From Candidatus Sulfopaludibacter sp. SbA3 (GTDB taxonomy: Bacteria; Acidobacteriota; Terriglobia; Bryobacterales; Bryobacteraceae), in contig CAMDED010000021.1 in NCBI GenBank assembly GCA_945893365.1, positions 1 through 64,000 of the forward strand: a DNA stretch of 64,000 nt, written 5' to 3'. The notes under the pieces were generated by a model, which was not told where the DNA came from, searched no databases, and saw only the letters and a program-made list of their open reading frames with translations. Shown here one piece after another: positions 41,687 through 59,550 of the stretch. How positions within the stretch are numbered: position 1 is the stretch's first letter; the number at the start of each line of letters is the position of its first letter. The position numbers and the translations under genes are program-made.

Positions 41687-42199
41687 ATGCCATTAGGTTC
41701 TGATACTCAGATTTGGGAAATACCGCCAGAGGGCATGAGCCCATCAAGGAAGGTCTTAGACTCTTCGTACCGGGAAGGCGTCAGTGACAATTGGAAAATG
41801 TCTCGCATCCATGGTGGCCCAGTTGTCAGCTATCGGCCTTGCCTCGACGCTCACTATCTGGCTTGGCGCAAACTCCACTGGCTAGATGCGAGACGGCGGC
41901 AATTGAGCCTTTGGGGTAGTCCGAGCGAAGAGGAAGAACGTGGCTATTCCTTACCGCTAGTCGAGGTGTTTCATCGCGCCGCTGCTGAGGCGCCATCAAT
42001 CTCAGTTGATCAAAACACAATGGCTGGTGCTCCATGTGTCGCCGGTACACGAATCCCGGTGTATGGCATCCTTGACGCGATTGAGGACCATGGCACATTT
42101 GAAGGTGTCATTAGATCCTATCCAAGGCTCACGCTTCAGCAGATTAAGGACGCGGTTCTATTCGCGAAACTGGTGGTGGAGTGCCCCGTTGGCGAATAA
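41687..42199 (+). CDS. DUF433 antitoxin-like protein with N-terminal extension
   Basis: A 170-residue protein. Its C-terminal ~70 residues are a DUF433 domain: SISVDQNTMAGAPCVAGTRI, PVYGILDAIEDHGTFEGVI, YPRLTLQQIKDAVLFAKLV. This is a helix-turn-helix-like VapB-type antitoxin domain. The first ~95 residues (with WEIPPEGMSPSRK and YLAWRKLHWLDARRRQL) form an unrecognised extension. AGGAG lies 11 bases before the ATG. The last codons overlap the TTG start of a DUF5615 PIN-like gene by 11 bases, the standard antitoxin-before-toxin arrangement. Confidence 0.8.
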   Translation: MPLGSDTQIWEIPPEGMSPSRKVLDSSYREGVSDNWKMSRIHGGPVVSYRPCLDAHYLAWRKLHWLDARRRQLSLWGSPSEEEERGYSLPLVEVFHRAAAEAPSISVDQNTMAGAPCVAGTRIPVYGILDAIEDHGTFEGVIRSYPRLTLQQIKDAVLFAKLVVECPVGE

Positions 42200-42668
42200 T
42201 CTGAGGCTTCTGCTGGATGAGTGCCTTAGACACGAATTGGCCGATGAAATTAAGAAGTGGTCCGCGGTCAATGTAGTTTGGGTCAATGACACAGTAACCC
42301 TTCCATCAACTGCAGACGATGCGCTGATGAACGAGGCACGATCGCAGAACCGCATTCTTGTAACGGAAGAGACCCGCTTGGATGAGACTAAGTTCAAAAT
42401 ATGCACGCATCCCGGCATAATAAGTTTTCGAGCAAAGAAACGCCATTCAGCGACTAAAGCAGAGATTTTCCGATCGTTCATGCTCTCGGGCCATCGGAGC
42501 CGCGCCAAGAAAGCGGTGACGGTTCTAAGAGTAGATGACGTGACTTTCAAGGAAATGGACTATACCGGCGACGTTGAAGACTGGTCATGCCGATGGGATC
42601 AGATCTCGAAGACTCCAAAACCCATCGATTCCAATTACTGCCCGTGGCGACCCAACAGAGCGAATTGA
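42189..42668 (+). CDS. DUF5615 PIN-like toxin
   Basis: A 159-residue PIN-like protein starting at a TTG within the end of the DUF433 gene. The N-terminal LRLLLDECLRHELADEI carries the first acidic residues (D, E at about 9-10). DDALMNEARSQNRILVTEETRLDE (written here as two blocks, DDALMNEARSQNRIL and VTEETRLDE, about 40-64) holds the next acidic cluster, and a FRAKKRH basic segment follows. DUF5615 proteins are predicted RNases paired with DUF433 antitoxins. The C-terminal ~50 residues extend beyond the usual domain. Probably a functional VapBC-like module; the target is unknown. Confidence 0.78.
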   Translation: MANNLRLLLDECLRHELADEIKKWSAVNVVWVNDTVTLPSTADDALMNEARSQNRILVTEETRLDETKFKICTHPGIISFRAKKRHSATKAEIFRSFMLSGHRSRAKKAVTVLRVDDVTFKEMDYTGDVEDWSCRWDQISKTPKPIDSNYCPWRPNRAN

Positions 42669-45626: not shown

Positions 45627-47042
45627 TTGCTTGAGCCGGGCGAAGAGATTCTGGCGCTTGAAAAGGGCCACTACGCGCTCGATCTGCGCGCGTCGCGGCT
45701 AACGATTCAAGCCTGGGACCGGCATCGCAATTTCGTCAGGCGCATCGTCGATATCCATAGCCGGCAGCGGGGAAAACTGGAGCTCGTGGTGGAGCGCTTC
45801 GCGAGAAAGCTCGGCCGCGTGACTCTGGTGGATCTGGCGCGTCCGGCGGCGGAGGGCTGGGAACGGAAAGGAGCGAGGCTGGTCTTTCGCGAACAACTGC
45901 GCGAGATGCTGTCCCGTCTCGATCCAGACTGGACTATCGCCGAGCTGAGCTCGGAGGCGGATCTCGAGCACTCGCTCTCACCGGTCTATCCGAGGGCCTT
46001 GCTGAAGAAGGGCTCCGCCGGGCGCGCGGTCATCGCGGCGGGACCCGATACGGCCGAGCCATCGGGCATTCTGAGCTTCGGTCTGGTCTGGCTCGACTAC
46101 CTGCGGAAGCGCGAGCCTCGATTGACGATCGACGGGATCTCGCTCTTTCTACCCAAGGGGCAGGAGGGTGAGACGGCCCTGCGTCTTCGTTTTCTCGACC
46201 CGCGCGCGGCGCGCTACGACCTCTTCACGTACGGCGAAAATGGTCTGGTGGAACCGGCGGATCCCATGGATCACGGCAATCTGAAGACGCGCCTCGACGT
46301 TTTTTGCAGCCCGGAGCCCCGCGCCGAACACTGGGTTGAACGCCTGTGCGAGGGGTCGGAGGCAGAGACCGTGGTGAATCCCGATGGGTCGGTTAGCGCA
46401 CGCTTGCGGGGGATCGAGTTCGCGCGTTCGGCGGGCCCGGAAGTGCTCTTCGGCCTCAAGAAGCGCGCTCTGTTGCATGAAGGGACGCTGGCCGAAGCAA
46501 GACGGCTCTGTACGGCGCTGGCGGAGGCGCGAAGAGAGGGTTCCCGCAATCGCGGGCATCCTTTATACCGGAGCCAACCGGAGCGTTGGCTTGAGTCGAG
46601 GGTGCGGGCGCAAATAGGGGAGCTGGACGCCACTCTGCTCGCTTCACCTGTCTATGGGCAGGTGCCGGCCGTGGCAGGTACCGAACGCAGCGTGATCGAC
46701 CTTCTGGCGGCGGACAGGCGAGGGCGCCTGACGGTCGTGGAGCTTAAGGCATCCGCCGATCTCCACCTGCCGCTGCAAGCGCTCGACTACTGGATTCGCG
46801 TGCAATGGCACGTGGAACGCGGCGAATTCAGCGGGCGCGGCTACTTCCCGGGCTTGGCTCTTGTGCGGGAGGCGCCCCGGCTGCTGCTGGTCTCGCCGGC
46901 GCTCGAGTTTCATCCAACCACGGAGACGATTCTGCGATATTTCTCAGCGCGCATCCCGGTGGAGCGCATCGGCGTCGCCGGGGGCTGGCGGCGCGACTTG
47001 AGGGTGATGTTCCGCTCGATTGGAGCGGCGACGCCGGATTGA
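45627..47042 (+). CDS. Hypothetical protein with C-terminal PD-(D/E)XK nuclease-like domain
   Basis: At least 471 residues. The frame is protein-like well upstream of the first ordinary start (TTG 45627): from 45525 it reads LSSLPTRAKAAGACNPAEAL, so a CTG start at 45525 or an unseen start is possible. The N-terminal ~280 residues are unrecognised. The C-terminal ~130 residues resemble a NucS/DUF91-like endonuclease fold: ERSVIDLLAADRRGRLTVV followed by ELKAS gives the D ... E-x-K catalytic pattern (about 352-378 in this numbering), then LQALDYWIRVQWH. A role in DNA processing is inferred. A small coiled-coil gene follows. Confidence 0.65.
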   Translation: MLEPGEEILALEKGHYALDLRASRLTIQAWDRHRNFVRRIVDIHSRQRGKLELVVERFARKLGRVTLVDLARPAAEGWERKGARLVFREQLREMLSRLDPDWTIAELSSEADLEHSLSPVYPRALLKKGSAGRAVIAAGPDTAEPSGILSFGLVWLDYLRKREPRLTIDGISLFLPKGQEGETALRLRFLDPRAARYDLFTYGENGLVEPADPMDHGNLKTRLDVFCSPEPRAEHWVERLCEGSEAETVVNPDGSVSARLRGIEFARSAGPEVLFGLKKRALLHEGTLAEARRLCTALAEARREGSRNRGHPLYRSQPERWLESRVRAQIGELDATLLASPVYGQVPAVAGTERSVIDLLAADRRGRLTVVELKASADLHLPLQALDYWIRVQWHVERGEFSGRGYFPGLALVREAPRLLLVSPALEFHPTTETILRYFSARIPVERIGVAGGWRRDLRVMFRSIGAATPD

Positions 47043-47335: not shown

Positions 47336-48258
47336 AAGCGTGGTTCACGATAGCGTCCGGCGTGGCGTGGCTGCTTTCCGCGCAAGAGCCCGGCGTACCT
47401 GTCGCGACGCCGGAGCCGCCAAAACCGGTTGTTCTTCAAAACGCGGGCAAGCCGATGCTCGTCCCCTACGCCTGCCCGGAAGAGGACATGCAGTGGGCGG
47501 GCATGGCATGTACCGAGGAAGATCCCTGCCCTGTCTTTCTGGAACTGGCCGCGGTGGAAACCGCCGGGAACCGGATGTTCGCGGCCGGCAATATTCACGG
47601 ATCCTCGACCACACTGTATTCGGTTCTGCTTGCGAGCGAGGACGCCGGGAAAACATGGACGGAGTCGAATGCGCGCCTGCGGGGCTCCGGATTCGACCAT
47701 ATTCAGTTCGCCGATTTCGAAACGGGCTGGATCAGCGGCCACCTGCTGCATCCGCTGACGCGCGATCCGTTTTTGCTGATCACTTCAGACGGCGGAAGAA
47801 CGTGGAGGCAGCAGCCCGTGTTTTCAGAGAGCCGCGCCGGAATGATGGAGCAGTTCTGGTTCGACTCGAAGAAGAACGGGACGATGCTCATCGAGTCCGG
47901 CGAATCCGGCAAACACGAATTGTACGAATCTATGAACGGAGGCGAGAGTTGGATGCTGCGCGAGGTAAGCGACCGCCCGATACGGACGAAAAAACCGCTG
48001 CGGCCCGCGAACGAGGACTTGCGCATTCGCGCCCACGCGGCGAGTAAATCCTACCGCATCGAAAGGAAACAGGGGGAGCGCTGGAACGTCGTGGCGAGTT
48101 TCCTGGTTCCGATTGCGCAGTGCCGCCCAGCGCCCCGGCAAGAGCCTCCACCTCCGCCCGAGGAATTAGCGGCCCCCGAGAAGCCCGTCCCCGCCGATAT
48201 TCAAGGCCCTCCGCCTCTACCAGCACGCCCGTCGAAGCCGCCGTCCCTAAAGAAGTGA
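47332..48258 (+). CDS. Exported BNR/Asp-box-type repeat protein
   Basis: A 308-residue protein with a signal peptide (MKAWFTIASGVAWLLSAQ). Three Asp-box-like motifs, SEDAGKTW (about 101-108), TSDGGRTW (about 148-155) and SMNGGESW (about 199-206), suggest a partial beta-propeller like those of sialidases or YCF48-type proteins. Four cysteines early in the mature part (CPEEDMQWAGMAC, EDPC) could form disulfides. The C-terminal ~50 residues are Pro-rich and end PSKPPSLKK. It overlaps the coiled-coil gene by four bases. No catalytic residue is evident. Confidence 0.65.
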   Translation: MKAWFTIASGVAWLLSAQEPGVPVATPEPPKPVVLQNAGKPMLVPYACPEEDMQWAGMACTEEDPCPVFLELAAVETAGNRMFAAGNIHGSSTTLYSVLLASEDAGKTWTESNARLRGSGFDHIQFADFETGWISGHLLHPLTRDPFLLITSDGGRTWRQQPVFSESRAGMMEQFWFDSKKNGTMLIESGESGKHELYESMNGGESWMLREVSDRPIRTKKPLRPANEDLRIRAHAASKSYRIERKQGERWNVVASFLVPIAQCRPAPRQEPPPPPEELAAPEKPVPADIQGPPPLPARPSKPPSLKK

Positions 48259-48429
48259 AGAAATTAGGACAGGGGGGAATGGCGTAACGGTTTCGTCCGA
48301 GTTGGCGTGCGCGCACAATGTCGCCGTGCGGCGTAAACTCCCGCCACCGGCGTGGCGCTGCTTGCGATGGTTGCGAGATTGGTACGTATCGGCGGGGCGT
48401 CTTGAGTAATTGCCCCTTGCCGGAGTGCC

Positions 48430-48591
48430 ACCACGAAACGCCCGGTCGATGGCTTCCCGACGATCGACGAGCACGCCGCGCACGGTGGGAAATTCGTTGA
48501 GCACCGCGGCGATCATCAATCCGCCACCGCCGAGGGTTTCGCGGCGATAGGCCACTAGCGTAGCCGGCGCGACTATACTCGATTGAGTCAT
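48430..48591 (-). pseudogene. Possible remnant of an O-methyltransferase gene
   Basis: On the minus strand the segment reads GGGGLMIAAVLNEFPTVRGV, then LVDRREAIDRA, which matches the SAM-binding region of plant-type/acetylserotonin O-methyltransferases (G-G-G-x ... P ... G-x-x-x-D). Upstream and downstream the similarity stops. Only about 40 codons remain, so it is a fragment if real. It fills part of the 331-bp gap before the TIR gene. The rest of the gap (48259-48429) shows nothing. Confidence 0.35.
48574..48579 (+). promoter_or_regulatory. Candidate -10 box of the TIR-STAND gene
   Basis: TATACT lies only 10 bases before the ATG at 48590, and no ribosome-binding site is visible. This is what a leaderless transcript would look like. 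No -35 hexamer is recognisable at the usual spacing. Confidence 0.3.
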
Positions 48592-51127
48592 GCATATCTT
48601 TCTGAGCTACGGTCACGACGAGCATGCGCCACTCGCCGGACGCATCAAGCAAGATCTCGAAAGAAAGGAGCACAAAGTCTGGTTCGACGTGGAACGACTG
48701 CGAGCGGGGATAGCTTGGGATGAGTACATCGAGGAAGGTCTGCGCAAGAGCGATTGCGTGATCTTGCTGATGACGCCTCACTCCGTGCGTCGGCCCGGAG
48801 GCTTTTGTCTAAATGAGATTGCTCGAGCGCTTTCCCTCGGGCTGAGAGTCATTCCTGTGATGGCGGTAAAGTGCGAACCGCCGATCACGGTTTGCCGCCT
48901 CCAGTATCTCGACATGACCAACTGCGGACCTGCCGATCAAAACGGCGGCCGCTATGAGGTTAAGCTTCAGCAGCTGCTAGAAGCCCTCAAAATACCAAGT
49001 CTCGATTTGGACGGCGGCCAGGCCCGCCTCATGAGGTACTTATCGCCCCTTTCGTTCGAGGCTGAAATCAAGAAGCACTTGCCCAGGTTCTACGGTCGCA
49101 GGCAGATTGTGGAGCGTGTGGATGAGTGGCTACGGGGGACGGAGCGCATTCTTTGGCTAACGGGAGATGCCGGCACCGGCAAGACCTCTCTGGTCTGCTG
49201 GCTCGCGCACATTCATCCGAGCGTTGCCGCCATCCATCTGTGCATCTACGGCGACAAGAGGAAGTCGGATCCGCGCGCGTGCGTGCGATCGATTGCCTAC
49301 CAGCTTGCGACTCAGCTTCCCGGCTACTGGGAAACGCTGTCGGCTCAACACCTGGAGAATCCCGAGGTCCATTCCGACGCGGAAGCGTCCTTCGACGGCT
49401 TGATCTCCCAGCCGCTTACGGCGTGCCCGCATCCAGGCAGGCAAGTTGTGGTTCTGATCGATGCCCTTGACGAGAGCAGCCAAGGCGGGCGAAGCGATTT
49501 GGCGGCCTTGCTTGCAAAAGGATTTGAGAACACTCCTCCGTGGCTTCGACTTGTTATCACAAGCCGAGATGTTCCCGAGGTCTCGAACCGGCTTCAAGGC
49601 ACAGACGCGCGCCCTCTTTCCTGGTGGGCGCCAGAGAACCAGAAGGACATTCGAGGCTATGTATCTCGCGAATTGGAACGGCTCGCGCATTCATCGCGAG
49701 AACGGCCTGCCGCTGTCGACGCCATATCGGCGAAGAGCGAGGGGATTTTTCTGTACGCGCATTGGGTGTGTAAGGAGGTGGAACGGGGTAAACTCTCTCT
49801 GGCGAAGCCGGAAGAGTTCCCGGTCGGATTGGGACAAGTTTATTTCAGGGAGTTTGACCGTATTTTCGGTGAGAATCAGGCTGAATACCATAGGCACTTC
49901 GGTCCGGCCATTGCAATCCTCTGTGCATCGGTCGAGCCGCTGGCACTGGACTTCTTGGCAGCCGAGTTCAGCTGGAACGATCTTCAACGCGATACGTTGA
50001 GGCGCCGGCTGGCTCCGCTGTTTCCCATCTTGGAAGGGGTGATTCGGCCTTTTCACCGGTCTCTGACCGAATGGCTCTCAACAACTGCCGCGGGCGCCTT
50101 CAAGGTTGACGTTGCAGAGGGGCATAGGCAACTGGCCCAGATTGCCTGGCGGAAGTACCGGGCGGGCAGCCTGAGCGAGAGCTCATACTTGATGGCCCAT
50201 GGAGCCAAGCACATGGCCAGGGCTGGAATGGCGAAGGAGTTTGAAGTATTCCTGAGCGACCCAAAAGTGATCGACGCTAAGTGCAAAGTCGATATGTTCG
50301 ACTTTGCGGCGGATATGGCTGCAGGCCAAGAGTGTGGCCTGTCGCTTGAATCAGTGGCGTCGCGATGCGTAGAAACTCTGGCGGCCACCGGCGCGGATGA
50401 AACTTTCCGGCAACGCTTGCGCGCGGCGCTGAGTCAGGCATTCGGGCCATATTCCAGTTGGCCCGAACCTGTCCGAAACTGTCTTGAACGAAGTGGACTT
50501 TTGCGCGTTCAATTGTTTGCGGCCGAAGTCATGGACGCCAGCGGCCTGCACGCGGAATCCGCTAGATATCTGTTGGAGAAACGCAAGCAGGCGGACATAC
50601 ACTACGCTGCCTTGTGCGTGAGGGAGGCGTCCGTTTGGCATCATTTGGAACAGGTCGAGAAGAGCCTTAACATGCTGCTCGACCTGGTATCCCAGAAGGA
50701 CGCGCTTGACCGGTACGAGGACGAGTACTGGTGGGCGCAGTATCACATCGGGATCAGTTACCGGTTGCTCAAAAACTATCGCGATGCGTCGGCGGCCCTC
50801 AGAAAGGTGATTGATGGAACGGCCGGCCGCGCTCTTAGAGTCGCCAGCCGCCACCAGATGGGCGTTATCGAGTTGGAAAGGGGCGACGTGGACCAAGCCG
50901 AAGAGATATTCCGTGAATGTCTCGAGGAGCGTACTGCCGATCCTTGGGATCATCGCAGAGCGTTCGAATACCGCAGGCTGGGGCAGGTGTATGCCTTGCG
51001 GAAGAACTTCTTGGAAGCGACGAAGGCGTTCAGCGAAGCAAAGGCTATATCGGCGCGCTGTGGACAGTGGCGTTACGTCCGGGAGGTAGAGGCTGACATC
51101 GCCGAATTTCTGGGTGATACTCAATAG
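48590..51127 (+). CDS. TIR-NACHT-TPR (STAND) immune-type protein
   Basis: An 845-residue multidomain protein. Residues 1-135 are a TIR domain: IFLSYGHDEHAPLAGRIKQD, KVWFDVERLRAG, SDCVILLMTP, with the conserved Glu at 76 in FCLNEIARAL, the catalytic residue of NAD-cleaving TIRs. Residues 165-560 form a NACHT/STAND NTPase: Walker A GDAGTGKTS (192-200), Walker B VVVLIDALDE (286-295), and LRLVITSRDVPEV (sensor-like, about 317-329). The C-terminus (about 560-845) is helical with at least three TPR repeats (YHIGISYRLLKNYRDASAAL, MGVIELERGDVDQAEEIF, LGQVYALRKNFLEATKAFSE), the likely sensor. This architecture is typical of anti-phage STAND proteins: target binding, oligomerisation, NAD depletion. A NUDIX gene follows after six bases. 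Confidence 0.9.
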   Translation: MHIFLSYGHDEHAPLAGRIKQDLERKEHKVWFDVERLRAGIAWDEYIEEGLRKSDCVILLMTPHSVRRPGGFCLNEIARALSLGLRVIPVMAVKCEPPITVCRLQYLDMTNCGPADQNGGRYEVKLQQLLEALKIPSLDLDGGQARLMRYLSPLSFEAEIKKHLPRFYGRRQIVERVDEWLRGTERILWLTGDAGTGKTSLVCWLAHIHPSVAAIHLCIYGDKRKSDPRACVRSIAYQLATQLPGYWETLSAQHLENPEVHSDAEASFDGLISQPLTACPHPGRQVVVLIDALDESSQGGRSDLAALLAKGFENTPPWLRLVITSRDVPEVSNRLQGTDARPLSWWAPENQKDIRGYVSRELERLAHSSRERPAAVDAISAKSEGIFLYAHWVCKEVERGKLSLAKPEEFPVGLGQVYFREFDRIFGENQAEYHRHFGPAIAILCASVEPLALDFLAAEFSWNDLQRDTLRRRLAPLFPILEGVIRPFHRSLTEWLSTTAAGAFKVDVAEGHRQLAQIAWRKYRAGSLSESSYLMAHGAKHMARAGMAKEFEVFLSDPKVIDAKCKVDMFDFAADMAAGQECGLSLESVASRCVETLAATGADETFRQRLRAALSQAFGPYSSWPEPVRNCLERSGLLRVQLFAAEVMDASGLHAESARYLLEKRKQADIHYAALCVREASVWHHLEQVEKSLNMLLDLVSQKDALDRYEDEYWWAQYHIGISYRLLKNYRDASAALRKVIDGTAGRALRVASRHQMGVIELERGDVDQAEEIFRECLEERTADPWDHRRAFEYRRLGQVYALRKNFLEATKAFSEAKAISARCGQWRYVREVEADIAEFLGDTQ

Positions 51128-51133
51128 TAGGGC

Positions 51134-51841
51134 ATGCTTCCGGACACGATACTCGTCGGCGACCTGCAGGTGAATCCGGAACTCCGTGATTCACACGCCT
51201 ATCTCGACGTGATCGATGAGCGATCCGCCCGTCCAACCGGCATGGCGGTGCGGTGGGATGTCGCTCACTCGATCGGACACTGGCATGCTTCTGTCGTTGT
51301 CCTGGCTGTGGATGCCGAAGGCAAAGTGGCACTCCAACAACGCGGGGAAAAGGACTCGCATGGCAAGTGGGACGTCTCGGTCGCGGGTCACCAGGATGCC
51401 GGCGAAACCGACGTCACCGCCGGCGTGCGAGAAGCTGAAGAGGAACTGGGACTCAAGATCAACCCCGCACGGTTGATCCGCCTCGGCTCGCCCTATCGAT
51501 TTCGGAAGATCGGGAATCCTTCTATCCAGTTCGACCATCACGAAAGCCCAACTTCCTACCTGTATCGCACCGCCAAACAAAATCGTGAACGGGTCAGCGT
51601 TTTTGTCGTGGTCTTGTCTGCCTGCGAGACAGCGTGTATCCGCACGGGTCCTAGCCTAGCGTCCCTGGCCGTGAAATGGGTCAGCGTCGCCGAAGCCACC
51701 GCGGACGCGATCCACGACGCTGCGCGCCATGCAAGCTCCTTCCGCCAGTTATTCGCCCACCCGGAAGTTGCGGCTGAACTTCAGAAGTGCGTCGCGGGCG
51801 CTATCGAAGCATCGTATGGCCCGAATATCCGAACGCCCTGA
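51134..51841 (+). CDS. NUDIX hydrolase, IPP-isomerase-like
   Basis: A 235-residue protein with an intact NUDIX box at about residues 91-113: G-HQDAG-E-TDVTAGV-REAEEELGL matches G-x5-E-x7-R-E-U-x-E-E-x-G-U, giving the metal-binding glutamates. The surrounding fold (DVIDERSARPTGMAVRWD, HWHASVVVLAV, LQQRGEKDSHGKWDVSVAGH) resembles isopentenyl-diphosphate-isomerase-type NUDIX proteins. The C-terminal ~70 residues are helical. It is six bases downstream of the TIR-STAND gene in the same direction, so they are very probably co-transcribed. A nucleotide-diphosphate substrate such as ADP-ribose is a reasonable inference, not shown by the sequence. Confidence 0.88.
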   Translation: MLPDTILVGDLQVNPELRDSHAYLDVIDERSARPTGMAVRWDVAHSIGHWHASVVVLAVDAEGKVALQQRGEKDSHGKWDVSVAGHQDAGETDVTAGVREAEEELGLKINPARLIRLGSPYRFRKIGNPSIQFDHHESPTSYLYRTAKQNRERVSVFVVVLSACETACIRTGPSLASLAVKWVSVAEATADAIHDAARHASSFRQLFAHPEVAAELQKCVAGAIEASYGPNIRTP

Positions 51842-57950: not shown

Positions 57951-58438
57951 TCAAAGCGGCTGGAACAGGATCGGCTGAAGCTGCTGGGGCAAGCGTTCCA
58001 GCTCGCTTGCATTGTCCTGAAGCAGTTCATGCCCCCAAGTCGTCGCAGTTCCTTCGAGGCAGTCCTCCGCCAATGCCAAACCGATCTTCTCGTAAGCGCC
58101 GAGTTTGACCCTGAGAGCTTCCGGTTCGGTCCAGACACCGAGAACAAAAACTCTGTCTTTCAAGTTGTCGGGAATGACGCTCTTCGCTTGCTCCAGCCTG
58201 TCGTGCTTACCATCGAAATCGATCAGCAGAACCATGGTTCACTTGGATACGTAGCCATGGCGCTGGCGTGATCCGACTCGAAACATTCCAGGACTTTTTT
58301 CCAACCGCCGGCCGCCGGGAGCACTTGGATCTGCTGATACGAGAGTGCCGGATGAAGGGTAAAGCCGGTGGTCCATTCATCGTTTGCACGGTCTTCTGGA
58401 AGCACCATGACGTGGGGCCTATACCTGTTGACGCTCAT
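57951..58438 (-). pseudogene. Toprim-like partner of the AAA ATPase, split by a frameshift
   Basis: Two overlapping frames appear to be halves of one protein of about 165 residues. The first (58438-58223) gives MSVNRYRPHVMVLPEDRAND with an acidic VLPED (Glu 15), then IQVLPAAGGWKKVLECFESD, and ends at a TGA. The second starts at ATG 58235 with MVLLIDFDGKHDRLEQAKSV, VFVLGVWTEPEAL and DNASELERLPQQLQPILF. The E ... DFD pattern is that of Toprim nucleases of OLD/RloB/DUF4276-like effectors. Its ATG overlaps the ATPase stop (ATGA). A stop directly before ATG 58235 means the halves could also be translated separately. Confidence 0.6.
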
Positions 58439-59550
58439 GGTTCGATGTCGCCGCGAATCAGGGTGCCGACAAGGTCCCCGTTGACCTGCAAATCCTTGAG
58501 CGGGCGAACGATCGTGGGTTCGAGATGGCTCTTCCGGTGTAGAACAAGCGTATTCTCGTCGGAAAAGCGGCGAATGGCCTCCGGGTTATGCGAAGTCGCA
58601 ATGAACTGGCCACCAGATTGAAAGGCTCTGCGAAGCGCCAATACAAAATGCCCAACCTCGGGCGGGGCAAGATAATTGTCGGGTTCATCCCAAAAGCAAA
58701 ACACGGGCCCATAGTGGACGTTTGCGGCAAGCACCAATGCGCATATCATGAAACACTTCTCGCCGTCGGACAGATCCTCGAAAGGAATGCTGACACTTCC
58801 CTGGTCGGTAGAGAACTGGACCGCAAGACTTCGAGAATCTTTGCCAATCACGGGATTCCTGATGTCTTTCAGGTCGGGCATCACCTGCTTGAGATACCCG
58901 TCGATCTGGGCGTAGGCGGCCGGCGCGTAAGCCAGCAGACCCGAAAACCACGCCCCAAAGTCGGTGACCTGAAGATTCGGTTCCAGCGTCTCCCGGTTGG
59001 AGTCTCCGGCAATCAAGACGGGCATCGGCCGAAGGATGAGCATGCGAGCGAGCCAATGCTTGAAGACGAACAAAGGATCCTTGGCCGACTGTTCCTGAAC
59101 AATCGGTAGAGCCATCATGTGCCAGTCGATACGAAACTTCGCCTCCTTTTCCTGTTCCTGGCCCGCTCTTGCAAGATACACTTGCGCCCCATTTCGAGTG
59201 TAGACGGGCTTGCCGTCCACCGCGAGCTTCTCTTCGAGCACGCGCAGTTCCTTGAACCCCGCCGGAAACTCGAAAGCGATAACATACTCGTAGATCCCGG
59301 CTTCCAGCTCGACCTCGATCTCAAATCGCACGGGGACGTCCGTGCGGCCGCGAGCGAGGTCCTTCGGTTTCAATAGATCGTCTACCCGGTTCGTTCCGCG
59401 CGCGATCTTCTGCAGAATTTCCAGCGCAAGCCCAACCGTTGTCTTGCCGGACCCGTTCTTTCCAATGAGCAGGACGGACGACTGGCCCAAGACGGGCAGC
59501 TCAAAGTTTTCCAGACAACGAAAGTTATGAACGTAAAGGCGACGTATCAC
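58435..59550 (-). CDS. AAA15 (OLD/RecF-like) ATPase, defence type
   Basis: A 371-residue ABC-like ATPase. Walker A is GKNGSGKTT (30-38) after FRCLENFELP. The ABC signature is LSDGEK (260-265), Walker B is VFCFWDEPDN (283-292) and the H-loop is ATSHNPE (318-324). The middle (about 60-240) is a helical insertion rather than a long SMC-like coiled coil. It starts at GTG 59550. Such AAA15 ATPases pair with Toprim nucleases in Gabija-, PARIS- and RloAB-like systems. Here a Toprim-like gene overlaps the 3' end by four bases but is frameshifted. No DNA-binding domain is seen. Confidence 0.85.
   Translation of the reverse strand: MIRRLYVHNFRCLENFELPVLGQSSVLLIGKNGSGKTTVGLALEILQKIARGTNRVDDLLKPKDLARGRTDVPVRFEIEVELEAGIYEYVIAFEFPAGFKELRVLEEKLAVDGKPVYTRNGAQVYLARAGQEQEKEAKFRIDWHMMALPIVQEQSAKDPLFVFKHWLARMLILRPMPVLIAGDSNRETLEPNLQVTDFGAWFSGLLAYAPAAYAQIDGYLKQVMPDLKDIRNPVIGKDSRSLAVQFSTDQGSVSIPFEDLSDGEKCFMICALVLAANVHYGPVFCFWDEPDNYLAPPEVGHFVLALRRAFQSGGQFIATSHNPEAIRRFSDENTLVLHRKSHLEPTIVRPLKDLQVNGDLVGTLIRGDIEP

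What the first reader, a model, noticed from the sequence alone, without database searches (positions are those of the whole stretch)
48590..51841. Two-gene TIR-NACHT-TPR plus NUDIX operon: candidate undescribed immune system
Seen: an intact TIR domain with catalytic-type Glu76, a complete NACHT (Walker A 192-200, Walker B 286-295), C-terminal TPRs, and six bases later an intact NUDIX hydrolase. Known: TIR-STAND proteins act in anti-phage immunity by cleaving NAD to ADP-ribose-type products, and in plants NUDIX enzymes damp TIR signalling. Inference: the NUDIX protein could be an off-switch that hydrolyses the TIR product, an effector that extends nucleotide depletion, or a guard against leaky toxicity. 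I do not know this exact pair as a described system. The flanks (gene debris, IS, toxin-antitoxin loci) are typical of a defence island.
Basis: partly seen in the sequence, partly recalled or inferred. Interest (0 to 1): 0.85.

Follow-up and report, generated by a model that had tools for sequence, protein, structure and literature searches.

The report
TIR immune receptor coupled to NUDIX
An acidobacterium carries an immune-receptor-like gene that should cut the coenzyme NAD, followed directly by a nucleotide-cleaving NUDIX enzyme, and a distant relative has both fused into one protein, so the two probably work as one unit; what they do together is untested.

Summary
48590-51127 encodes an 845-aa TIR-STAND(NACHT-like)-TPR protein whose Glu76 aligns with the conserved Glu of the SARM1 TIR; 51134-51841 encodes a NUDIX protein with a canonical box. 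Both genes share one reading frame, separated by TAG TAG GGC. The decisive new fact: a distant acidobacterial MAG carries TIR-STAND-TPR-NUDIX as one 1105-aa ORF. The two NUDIX form their own clade (100/99) with hydrolase, not isomerase, motifs. TPR tail and NUDIX keep company on two different TIR-STAND heads: head trees reject window+fusion (AU p 0.0005), while of four TIR-STAND homologues only the fusion clearly shares the tail. The unit is rare: 2 of 396 phylum genomes, one confirmed locus in one pattern scan of genome contigs. I read it as a two-enzyme NLR-like immune receptor in which NUDIX cleaves the TIR product, to set a threshold or to make NAD loss irreversible. Coupling is well supported; substrate, role and antiphage function are inferred. 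Ten literature searches showed no such bacterial pair. New variant of a known kind.

The parts
48590..51127 (+). TIR-STAND(NPHP3_N/NACHT-like)-TPR gene, 845 aa
   Evidence: ORF; Pfam; homologues
48596..48922 (+). TIR domain, residues 3-111
   Evidence: TIR_2 4.1e-21; SARM1 TIR alignment
48815..48817 (+). codon of Glu76, putative catalytic Glu of the TIR
   Evidence: invariant in the window and 4 homologues, aligns with SARM1 Glu
49115..49567 (+). STAND NTPase core, residues 176-326
   Evidence: NPHP3_N 5.1e-24; NACHT 26.0 bits, cut-off 26.7
49163..49186 (+). Walker A GDAGTGKT, residues 192-199
   Evidence: read from sequence; G195, G197, K198 invariant in 5 sequences
49445..49474 (+). Walker B, residues 286-295
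   Evidence: read from sequence; D291, L293, D294, E295 invariant in 5 sequences
50210..51124 (+). C-terminal TPR tail, residues 541-845; clearly matched only by the fusion protein among the TIR-STAND homologues
   Evidence: 33% over 312 aa; fusion 372, shuffles at most 57; L023 marginal, 70 against at most 62
51125..51133 (+). tandem in-frame stops TAG TAG, then GGC, before the NUDIX ATG
51134..51841 (+). NUDIX hydrolase gene, 235 aa
   Evidence: ORF; NUDIX 2.5e-13
51386..51454 (+). canonical NUDIX box GX5EX7REUXEEXGU, residues 85-107
51455..51586 (+). long loop, residues 108-151, whose FRKxGxPxIxxDHHxxPxSxxYRTxKxNRE stretch is shared with the fusion; 44 residues in both, 15-27 in 21 of the other 23 rows, 49 and 53 in two

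Best explanation
The two genes form one immune-type unit. The STAND-TPR part senses a trigger (inferred: a phage product) and oligomerises with ATP; this activates the TIR domain, which cleaves NAD+ to nicotinamide and ADP-ribose or a cyclic variant. The NUDIX enzyme, held to the receptor (as a partner chain here, as the same chain in the fusion), cleaves the pyrophosphate of that product to AMP and a ribose phosphate. Its likely role is either to raise the firing threshold by clearing leaked product, or to make the NAD loss irreversible, so that the product cannot be rebuilt into NAD+ by phage pathways such as NARP1. Shown here: domains and motifs, gene order, shared frame, the natural fusion, the shared company of TPR tail and NUDIX. 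Inferred: NADase activity, trigger, NUDIX substrate and role, physical contact in the window version, antiphage function.
For: Natural fusion TIR-STAND-TPR-NUDIX in one ORF of 1105 aa. Same-frame adjacency with 6 nt between the first stop and the ATG. In 396 phylum genomes the two best NUDIX matches are the window and the fusion (8e-56; the next is 3e-16), the same two loci that share the tail among the receptor homologues found. NUDIX is the best conserved part of the pair (45% over 200 aa, against TIR 27%, STAND 28%, TPR tail 33%), with the hydrolase box intact in both, which argues for catalysis. Both genes have GC3 0.661, below 13 other window genes (0.672-0.811), as for one joint acquisition. 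TIR Glu conserved. Precedents: an active NUDT9H domain fused to the ADPR-gated channel of the sea anemone degrades ADPR, its agonist (PMC5671594, abstract); Arabidopsis NUDT7 suppresses cell death by the TIR protein RBA1 (PMC9153377, passage); NARP1 rebuilds NAD+ from ADPR and nicotinamide (PMC12774641, passages).
Against: Only two instances. NUDIX goes with the TPR tail rather than with the TIR: 3 of 4 other TIR-STAND homologues lack it, and the heads of window and fusion are not sisters. Sequence gives no substrate: matches to E. coli ADP-sugar pyrophosphatases NudF and NudE are insignificant (E 0.37 and 0.15), the nearest E. coli protein being Idi (3e-7). In the NUDT7 passage the substrate is 2',3'-cAMP/cGMP, not ADPR. 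The NUDIX structure model is unusable (pLDDT 39). Cyclic TIR products may resist a NUDIX: a preprint says no protein was known to hydrolyse 2'/3'cADPR before a phage glycosidase (PMC13232231, abstract and opening).
Confidence: 0.42

Rival explanations
1. NUDIX is part of the sensor: the TPR-NUDIX tail recognises a nucleotide or a phage NUDIX-like process (an integrated decoy or ligand-binding domain), and binding or turnover there triggers the TIR head.
For: TPR tail and NUDIX stay together while the TIR-STAND heads differ. NUDIX sits at the sensing end. Human TRPM2 uses a NUDIX domain that lost its activity as an ADPR sensor (PMC5671594 abstract). NUDIX proteins are common in larger phages (PMC9503650 passages).
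Against: Catalytic box intact in both copies and NUDIX more conserved than the rest; sensor parts usually diverge fastest (general knowledge). In the window it is a separate chain.
Confidence: 0.2
2. NUDIX is a second effector with its own substrate (NTPs, dinucleotide polyphosphates, RNA caps, NAD itself), switched on by the same receptor to deepen nucleotide depletion.
For: Physical coupling as above. A homologous TPR stretch in another acidobacterium (L055, helix-turn-helix plus TPR) is followed by a gene with an HD_4 domain: the tail may be a controller of nucleotide hydrolases.
Against: One instance, 198 bp apart, homology over about 120 residues of TPR only. No toxicity data.
Confidence: 0.2
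3. The window NUDIX gene is a decayed or neutral remnant of a fusion gene split by stop codons, with no present role.
For: Same frame and tandem stops would fit a split fusion.
Against: The ORF has a start right after the stops, an intact box and coding-like GC3 0.661; 45% identity to the fusion over 200 aa.
Confidence: 0.08
4. Coincidental neighbour: a housekeeping NUDIX beside an unrelated immune-type gene.
For: NUDIX genes are common; its core is up to 48% identical over 63-83 residues to other NUDIX proteins of acidobacteria.
Against: Fusion in a distant genome, own clade 100/99, long loop shared with the fusion; no NUDIX match at E 1e-10 in 200 other relatives searched.
Confidence: 0.04

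Closest known systems
Bacterial TIR NADases of defence (Thoeris ThsB/ThcB and others)
   Same: TIR fold with catalytic-type Glu; PADLOC ThsB 2.1e-4 and NCBIfam ThcB4 26.7 bits to the TIR part
   Different: far below the ThcB4 cut-off of 220; a NUDIX and not a ThsA-type effector next door; STAND and TPR parts
Avs (AVAST) and bNACHT antiphage STAND proteins
   Same: tripartite effector-STAND-sensor plan (PMC12169576 and PMC10907252, passages)
   Different: no PADLOC Avs model among the matches at E 1e-3; NACHT model under its cut-off; NTPase of NPHP3_N type; NUDIX coupled
Plant TIR proteins and NUDT7
   Same: TIR enzyme whose cell-death output (RBA1) a NUDIX hydrolase suppresses (PMC9153377, passage)
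   Different: there the NUDIX is a separate gene and cleaves 2',3'-cAMP/cGMP in the passage seen; RBA1 is a TIR-only protein (recalled)
TRPM2 with C-terminal NUDT9H
   Same: NUDIX domain in the same chain as an ADPR-responsive module, as sensor in man or as degrader in sea anemone (PMC5671594 abstract)
   Different: ion channel, no TIR, eukaryotic

Membership tests
TIR NADase | TIR fold with Glu at the SARM1 position | tested here: met
TIR NADase | NAD+ cleavage | not testable with these tools
   needs assay
STAND NTPase | intact Walker A and B | tested here: met
bNACHT | NACHT model above its cut-off | tested here: not met
   26.0 against 26.7 bits; NPHP3_N passes
Avs (AVAST) | match to a PADLOC Avs profile | tested here: not met
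   none among the 6 families at E 1e-3 (PADLOC-DB of 2023)
Avs (AVAST) | activation by phage proteins through the repeat sensor | not testable with these tools
   needs phage assay
Thoeris | ThsB/ThcB-type TIR at model cut-off and adjacent cADPR-dependent effector (definition recalled) | tested here: not met
   ThcB4 26.7 bits, cut-off 220; neighbour is a NUDIX
NUDIX pyrophosphohydrolase | canonical box GX5EX7REUXEEXGU | tested here: met
   definition in PMC5389931 (passages)
IPP isomerase (NUDIX clan) | isomerase box (RRX2YEXGU) and SVCGH Cys (role of the Cys recalled) | tested here: not met
   window SVAGH and REAEEELGL, fusion SVSGH and RETYEEVGL, E. coli Idi SVCGH and RRCRYELGV. NCBIfam isomerase model is the best match but at 35.1 bits against cut-off 127; Idi is the nearest E. 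coli protein compared (E 3e-7)
ADP-ribose pyrophosphatase subfamily | significant similarity to a characterised member | tested here: inconclusive
   NudF E 0.37, NudE E 0.15; one PDB MutT/nudix entry (1sjy) at 6e-4 by profile; substrate cannot be read at such distance

The most novel reading that the evidence does not exclude
A modular two-enzyme NAD-destroying receptor: a TPR-NUDIX tail is joined to different TIR-STAND heads so that one complex cuts NAD+ twice (TIR at the glycosidic bond, NUDIX at the pyrophosphate), turning it into nicotinamide, AMP and ribose phosphate. The product cannot be recycled by phage NAD+ rebuilding pathways such as NARP1: an immune counter to an anti-immune pathway, or, with the same parts, a receptor that carries its own signal terminator.
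Probability: 0.22. Interest if true: 0.85.

Novelty: new variant of a known kind. Interest (0 to 1): 0.6.

Why it matters
In plants and animals NUDIX enzymes tune TIR or ADP-ribose signals, but in my searches I saw no bacterial immune-type receptor with one built in. A fused and a split natural version give a ready genetic test of whether the product of a TIR is removed at its source, and of whether hosts fight phage NAD+ rebuilding by destroying ADP-ribose.

Tried and rejected
Own NUDIX promoter: chance-level match only. IPP isomerase: rejected on motifs and cut-off, although it is the nearest named family by sequence. Reading through TAG: thought unlikely because two stops stand in tandem; 5 of 13 other window ORFs end in TAG, but these were called with the standard code, so that is no independent test of recoding. 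Structure: NUDIX pLDDT 39 and receptor pLDDT 53, too poor for fold searches, so none was run.

Wider occurrence (sets overlap, and differ in query and cut-off; the window's own genome is counted where it was in the set): receptor 2 of 201 relatives, 5 of 396 phylum genomes; NUDIX 1 of 201, 13 of 396 at the loose 1e-7, of which 11 match only part of the protein around the NUDIX core; NUDIX profile 1 of 38, G464 itself; tail+NUDIX profile 0 of 6, 1 of 257, the window, 6 of 148, all NUDIX core only, 0 of 13, 1 of 118, TPR only; TPR profile 1 of 162, the same locus. Apart from the window and G464 none of these matches is the unit. Other phyla were not reached by the genome search. The genome-contig scan used only two peptide patterns (1 confirmed of 40 stretches), so divergent copies could be missed. 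Viral contigs: five scans, no confirmed relative. Plasmids: only weak or partial matches or none. Phages: none for the NUDIX.

A long loop alone is not unique: L014 and L015 have even longer ones (49 and 53), with other sequence. In the NUDIX tree L044 was left out as a copy of L011; several branches there are long, and the tree warns of it. The ORF fragment at 48247-48591 (GC3 0.643) was not counted among the 13 genes.

Literature: ten searches showed, in the listings and passages I saw, no TIR-STAND-NUDIX system in bacteria; long result lists were only seen in part. PMC7159879 (passages) names Nudix and TIR among effector domains of other conflict systems. One earlier survey of nucleotide-centred conflict systems that I recall was looked up under the id I remembered and is not held, so a mention in print cannot be excluded.
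Full report
What is there. The window is part of contig 21 of a 7.88 Mb assembly in 299 contigs; G464, called of the same phylum, carries the contig that a public record names Acidobacteria, so the window is acidobacterial by inference. 48590-51127 encodes 845 aa with TIR, a STAND NTPase of NPHP3_N type and C-terminal TPRs; 51134-51841 encodes a 235-aa NUDIX protein. Walker key residues and Glu76 are invariant in the window and four homologues, and Glu76 aligns with the Glu of the SARM1 TIR (that this Glu is the catalytic one is recalled). The NUDIX box is canonical. The two ORFs are in the same frame: CAA TAG TAG GGC ATG, and a profile search reports them as one frame with two TAG inside. Both have GC3 0.661, lower than 13 other window genes (0.672-0.811).

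The natural fusion. Searching 396 phylum genomes gave receptor matches in 5 and NUDIX matches (E 1e-7) in 13, the window's own included. In G464 both matches lie in one open frame: an ORF of 1105 aa with TIR, NPHP3_N, TPR and NUDIX. A scan of genome contigs found the same protein in JAFGIY010000248.1, a MAG titled Acidobacteria bacterium isolate Zod_Metabat.240 (identity of the protein). Its neighbours do not look like defence genes (read from the sequences). Identity window to fusion: TIR 27% over 113, STAND 28% over 398, TPR tail 33% over 312, NUDIX 45% over 200.

Where the NUDIX belongs. A tree of 24 rows puts window and fusion NUDIX together (100/99); 5 E. coli proteins and 17 other rows lie outside. 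Both have 44 residues between the box and the next conserved Glu; of the other 23 aligned rows 21 have 15-27 and two (L014, L015) have 49 and 53. The two share FRKxGxPxIxxDHHxxPxSxxYRTxKxNRE there. By sequence the nearest named family is the IPP isomerases (E. coli Idi E 3e-7), but it is not one: Idi has SVCGH and RRCRYELGV where these have SVAGH/SVSGH and REAEEELGL/RETYEEVGL (box types in PMC5389931, passages). Its substrate cannot be told: NudC, NudE, NudF and YfcD match at E 0.012 to 1.3.

Heads and tails. Besides the window, four loci have TIR-STAND heads: the fusion, L023 (same genome as the fusion), L024 and L025; two more (L026, L027) match by the STAND only. Their C-termini differ: L023 other TPRs, L024 WD40, L025 nothing recognised. 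The window's tail matches the fusion (score 372 against at most 57 in 100 shuffles), L023 marginally (70 against at most 62), the other two not. No NUDIX match lay in the fetched stretches of L023, L024 or L025 (for L024 only 1.7 kb follow the gene). The heads tell another story: window groups with L023 and L025, apart from the fusion (99/99 TIR; 95/94 for window+L023 in the STAND; 100/99 joined), and holding window+fusion together is rejected (AU p 0.007, 0.011 and 0.0005). With five rows and a long fusion branch this is suggestive, not final; either the tail was moved between heads, or relatives replaced it. Either way tail and NUDIX kept company in the two cases known.

A further lead. The tail's TPRs also match L055 (34% over 119 aa), a helix-turn-helix plus TPR protein followed 198 bp later by a gene with an HD_4 domain; the HRRAFEYRRLG stretch is largely kept. 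If this holds elsewhere, the tail may be a controller of nucleotide hydrolases. It is one case, and the same genome was the only one of 162 in its class to match.

How it probably works. By the plan of STAND immune proteins (PMC12169576, PMC10907252, passages), the tail senses, the NTPase assembles and the N-terminal domain acts. TIR enzymes yield ADPR or cyclic forms; NUDIX enzymes cut pyrophosphates, in one effector that of ADPR (PMC9963460, passages). Coupling the two suggests work on one product. The anemone TRPM2 has an active NUDIX that lowers its own agonist, the human one an inactive NUDIX that senses it (PMC5671594, abstract), so removal and sensing are both real options. Phages rebuild NAD+ from ADPR (NARP1, PMC12774641, passages), and a preprint reports a phage enzyme whose cleavage of cyclic signals enables restoration of NAD+ (PMC13232231, abstract and opening); a host NUDIX that destroys ADPR would block such rebuilding. 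That last idea is mine and untested.

Limits. Two instances; no activity data; poor models; genome sampling within one phylum; collection scans by exact patterns. Antiphage function is inferred from domains. Verdict: a real, coupled unit, a new variant of TIR-STAND immune-type receptors, rare where I could look, with a testable enzymatic question.

Noticed in passing
L055:1072-1998 and L055:2197-3477: Helix-turn-helix plus TPR protein whose TPRs resemble the window receptor's tail, followed by a gene with an HD_4 domain (RelA/SpoT-like hydrolase, recalled).
   Followed up: partly
window 51125-51133: Two tandem TAG stops in frame between receptor and NUDIX, as if a fusion had been split.
   Followed up: partly
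   Followed up: partly
window 41687-42668: DUF433 and DUF5615 gene pair, a toxin-antitoxin-like arrangement (recalled), 6-7 kb upstream.
   Followed up: no
window 58435-59550 (-): AAA_21/AAA_15 ATPase (AbiEii-type by the Pfam description) with GC3 0.677, also lower than most neighbours.
   Followed up: no
window 45627-47042: 471-aa protein without Pfam match and with weak PADLOC PDC-S11 matches (1.9e-5) over a short stretch that looks like a nuclease motif (reading only).
   Followed up: no
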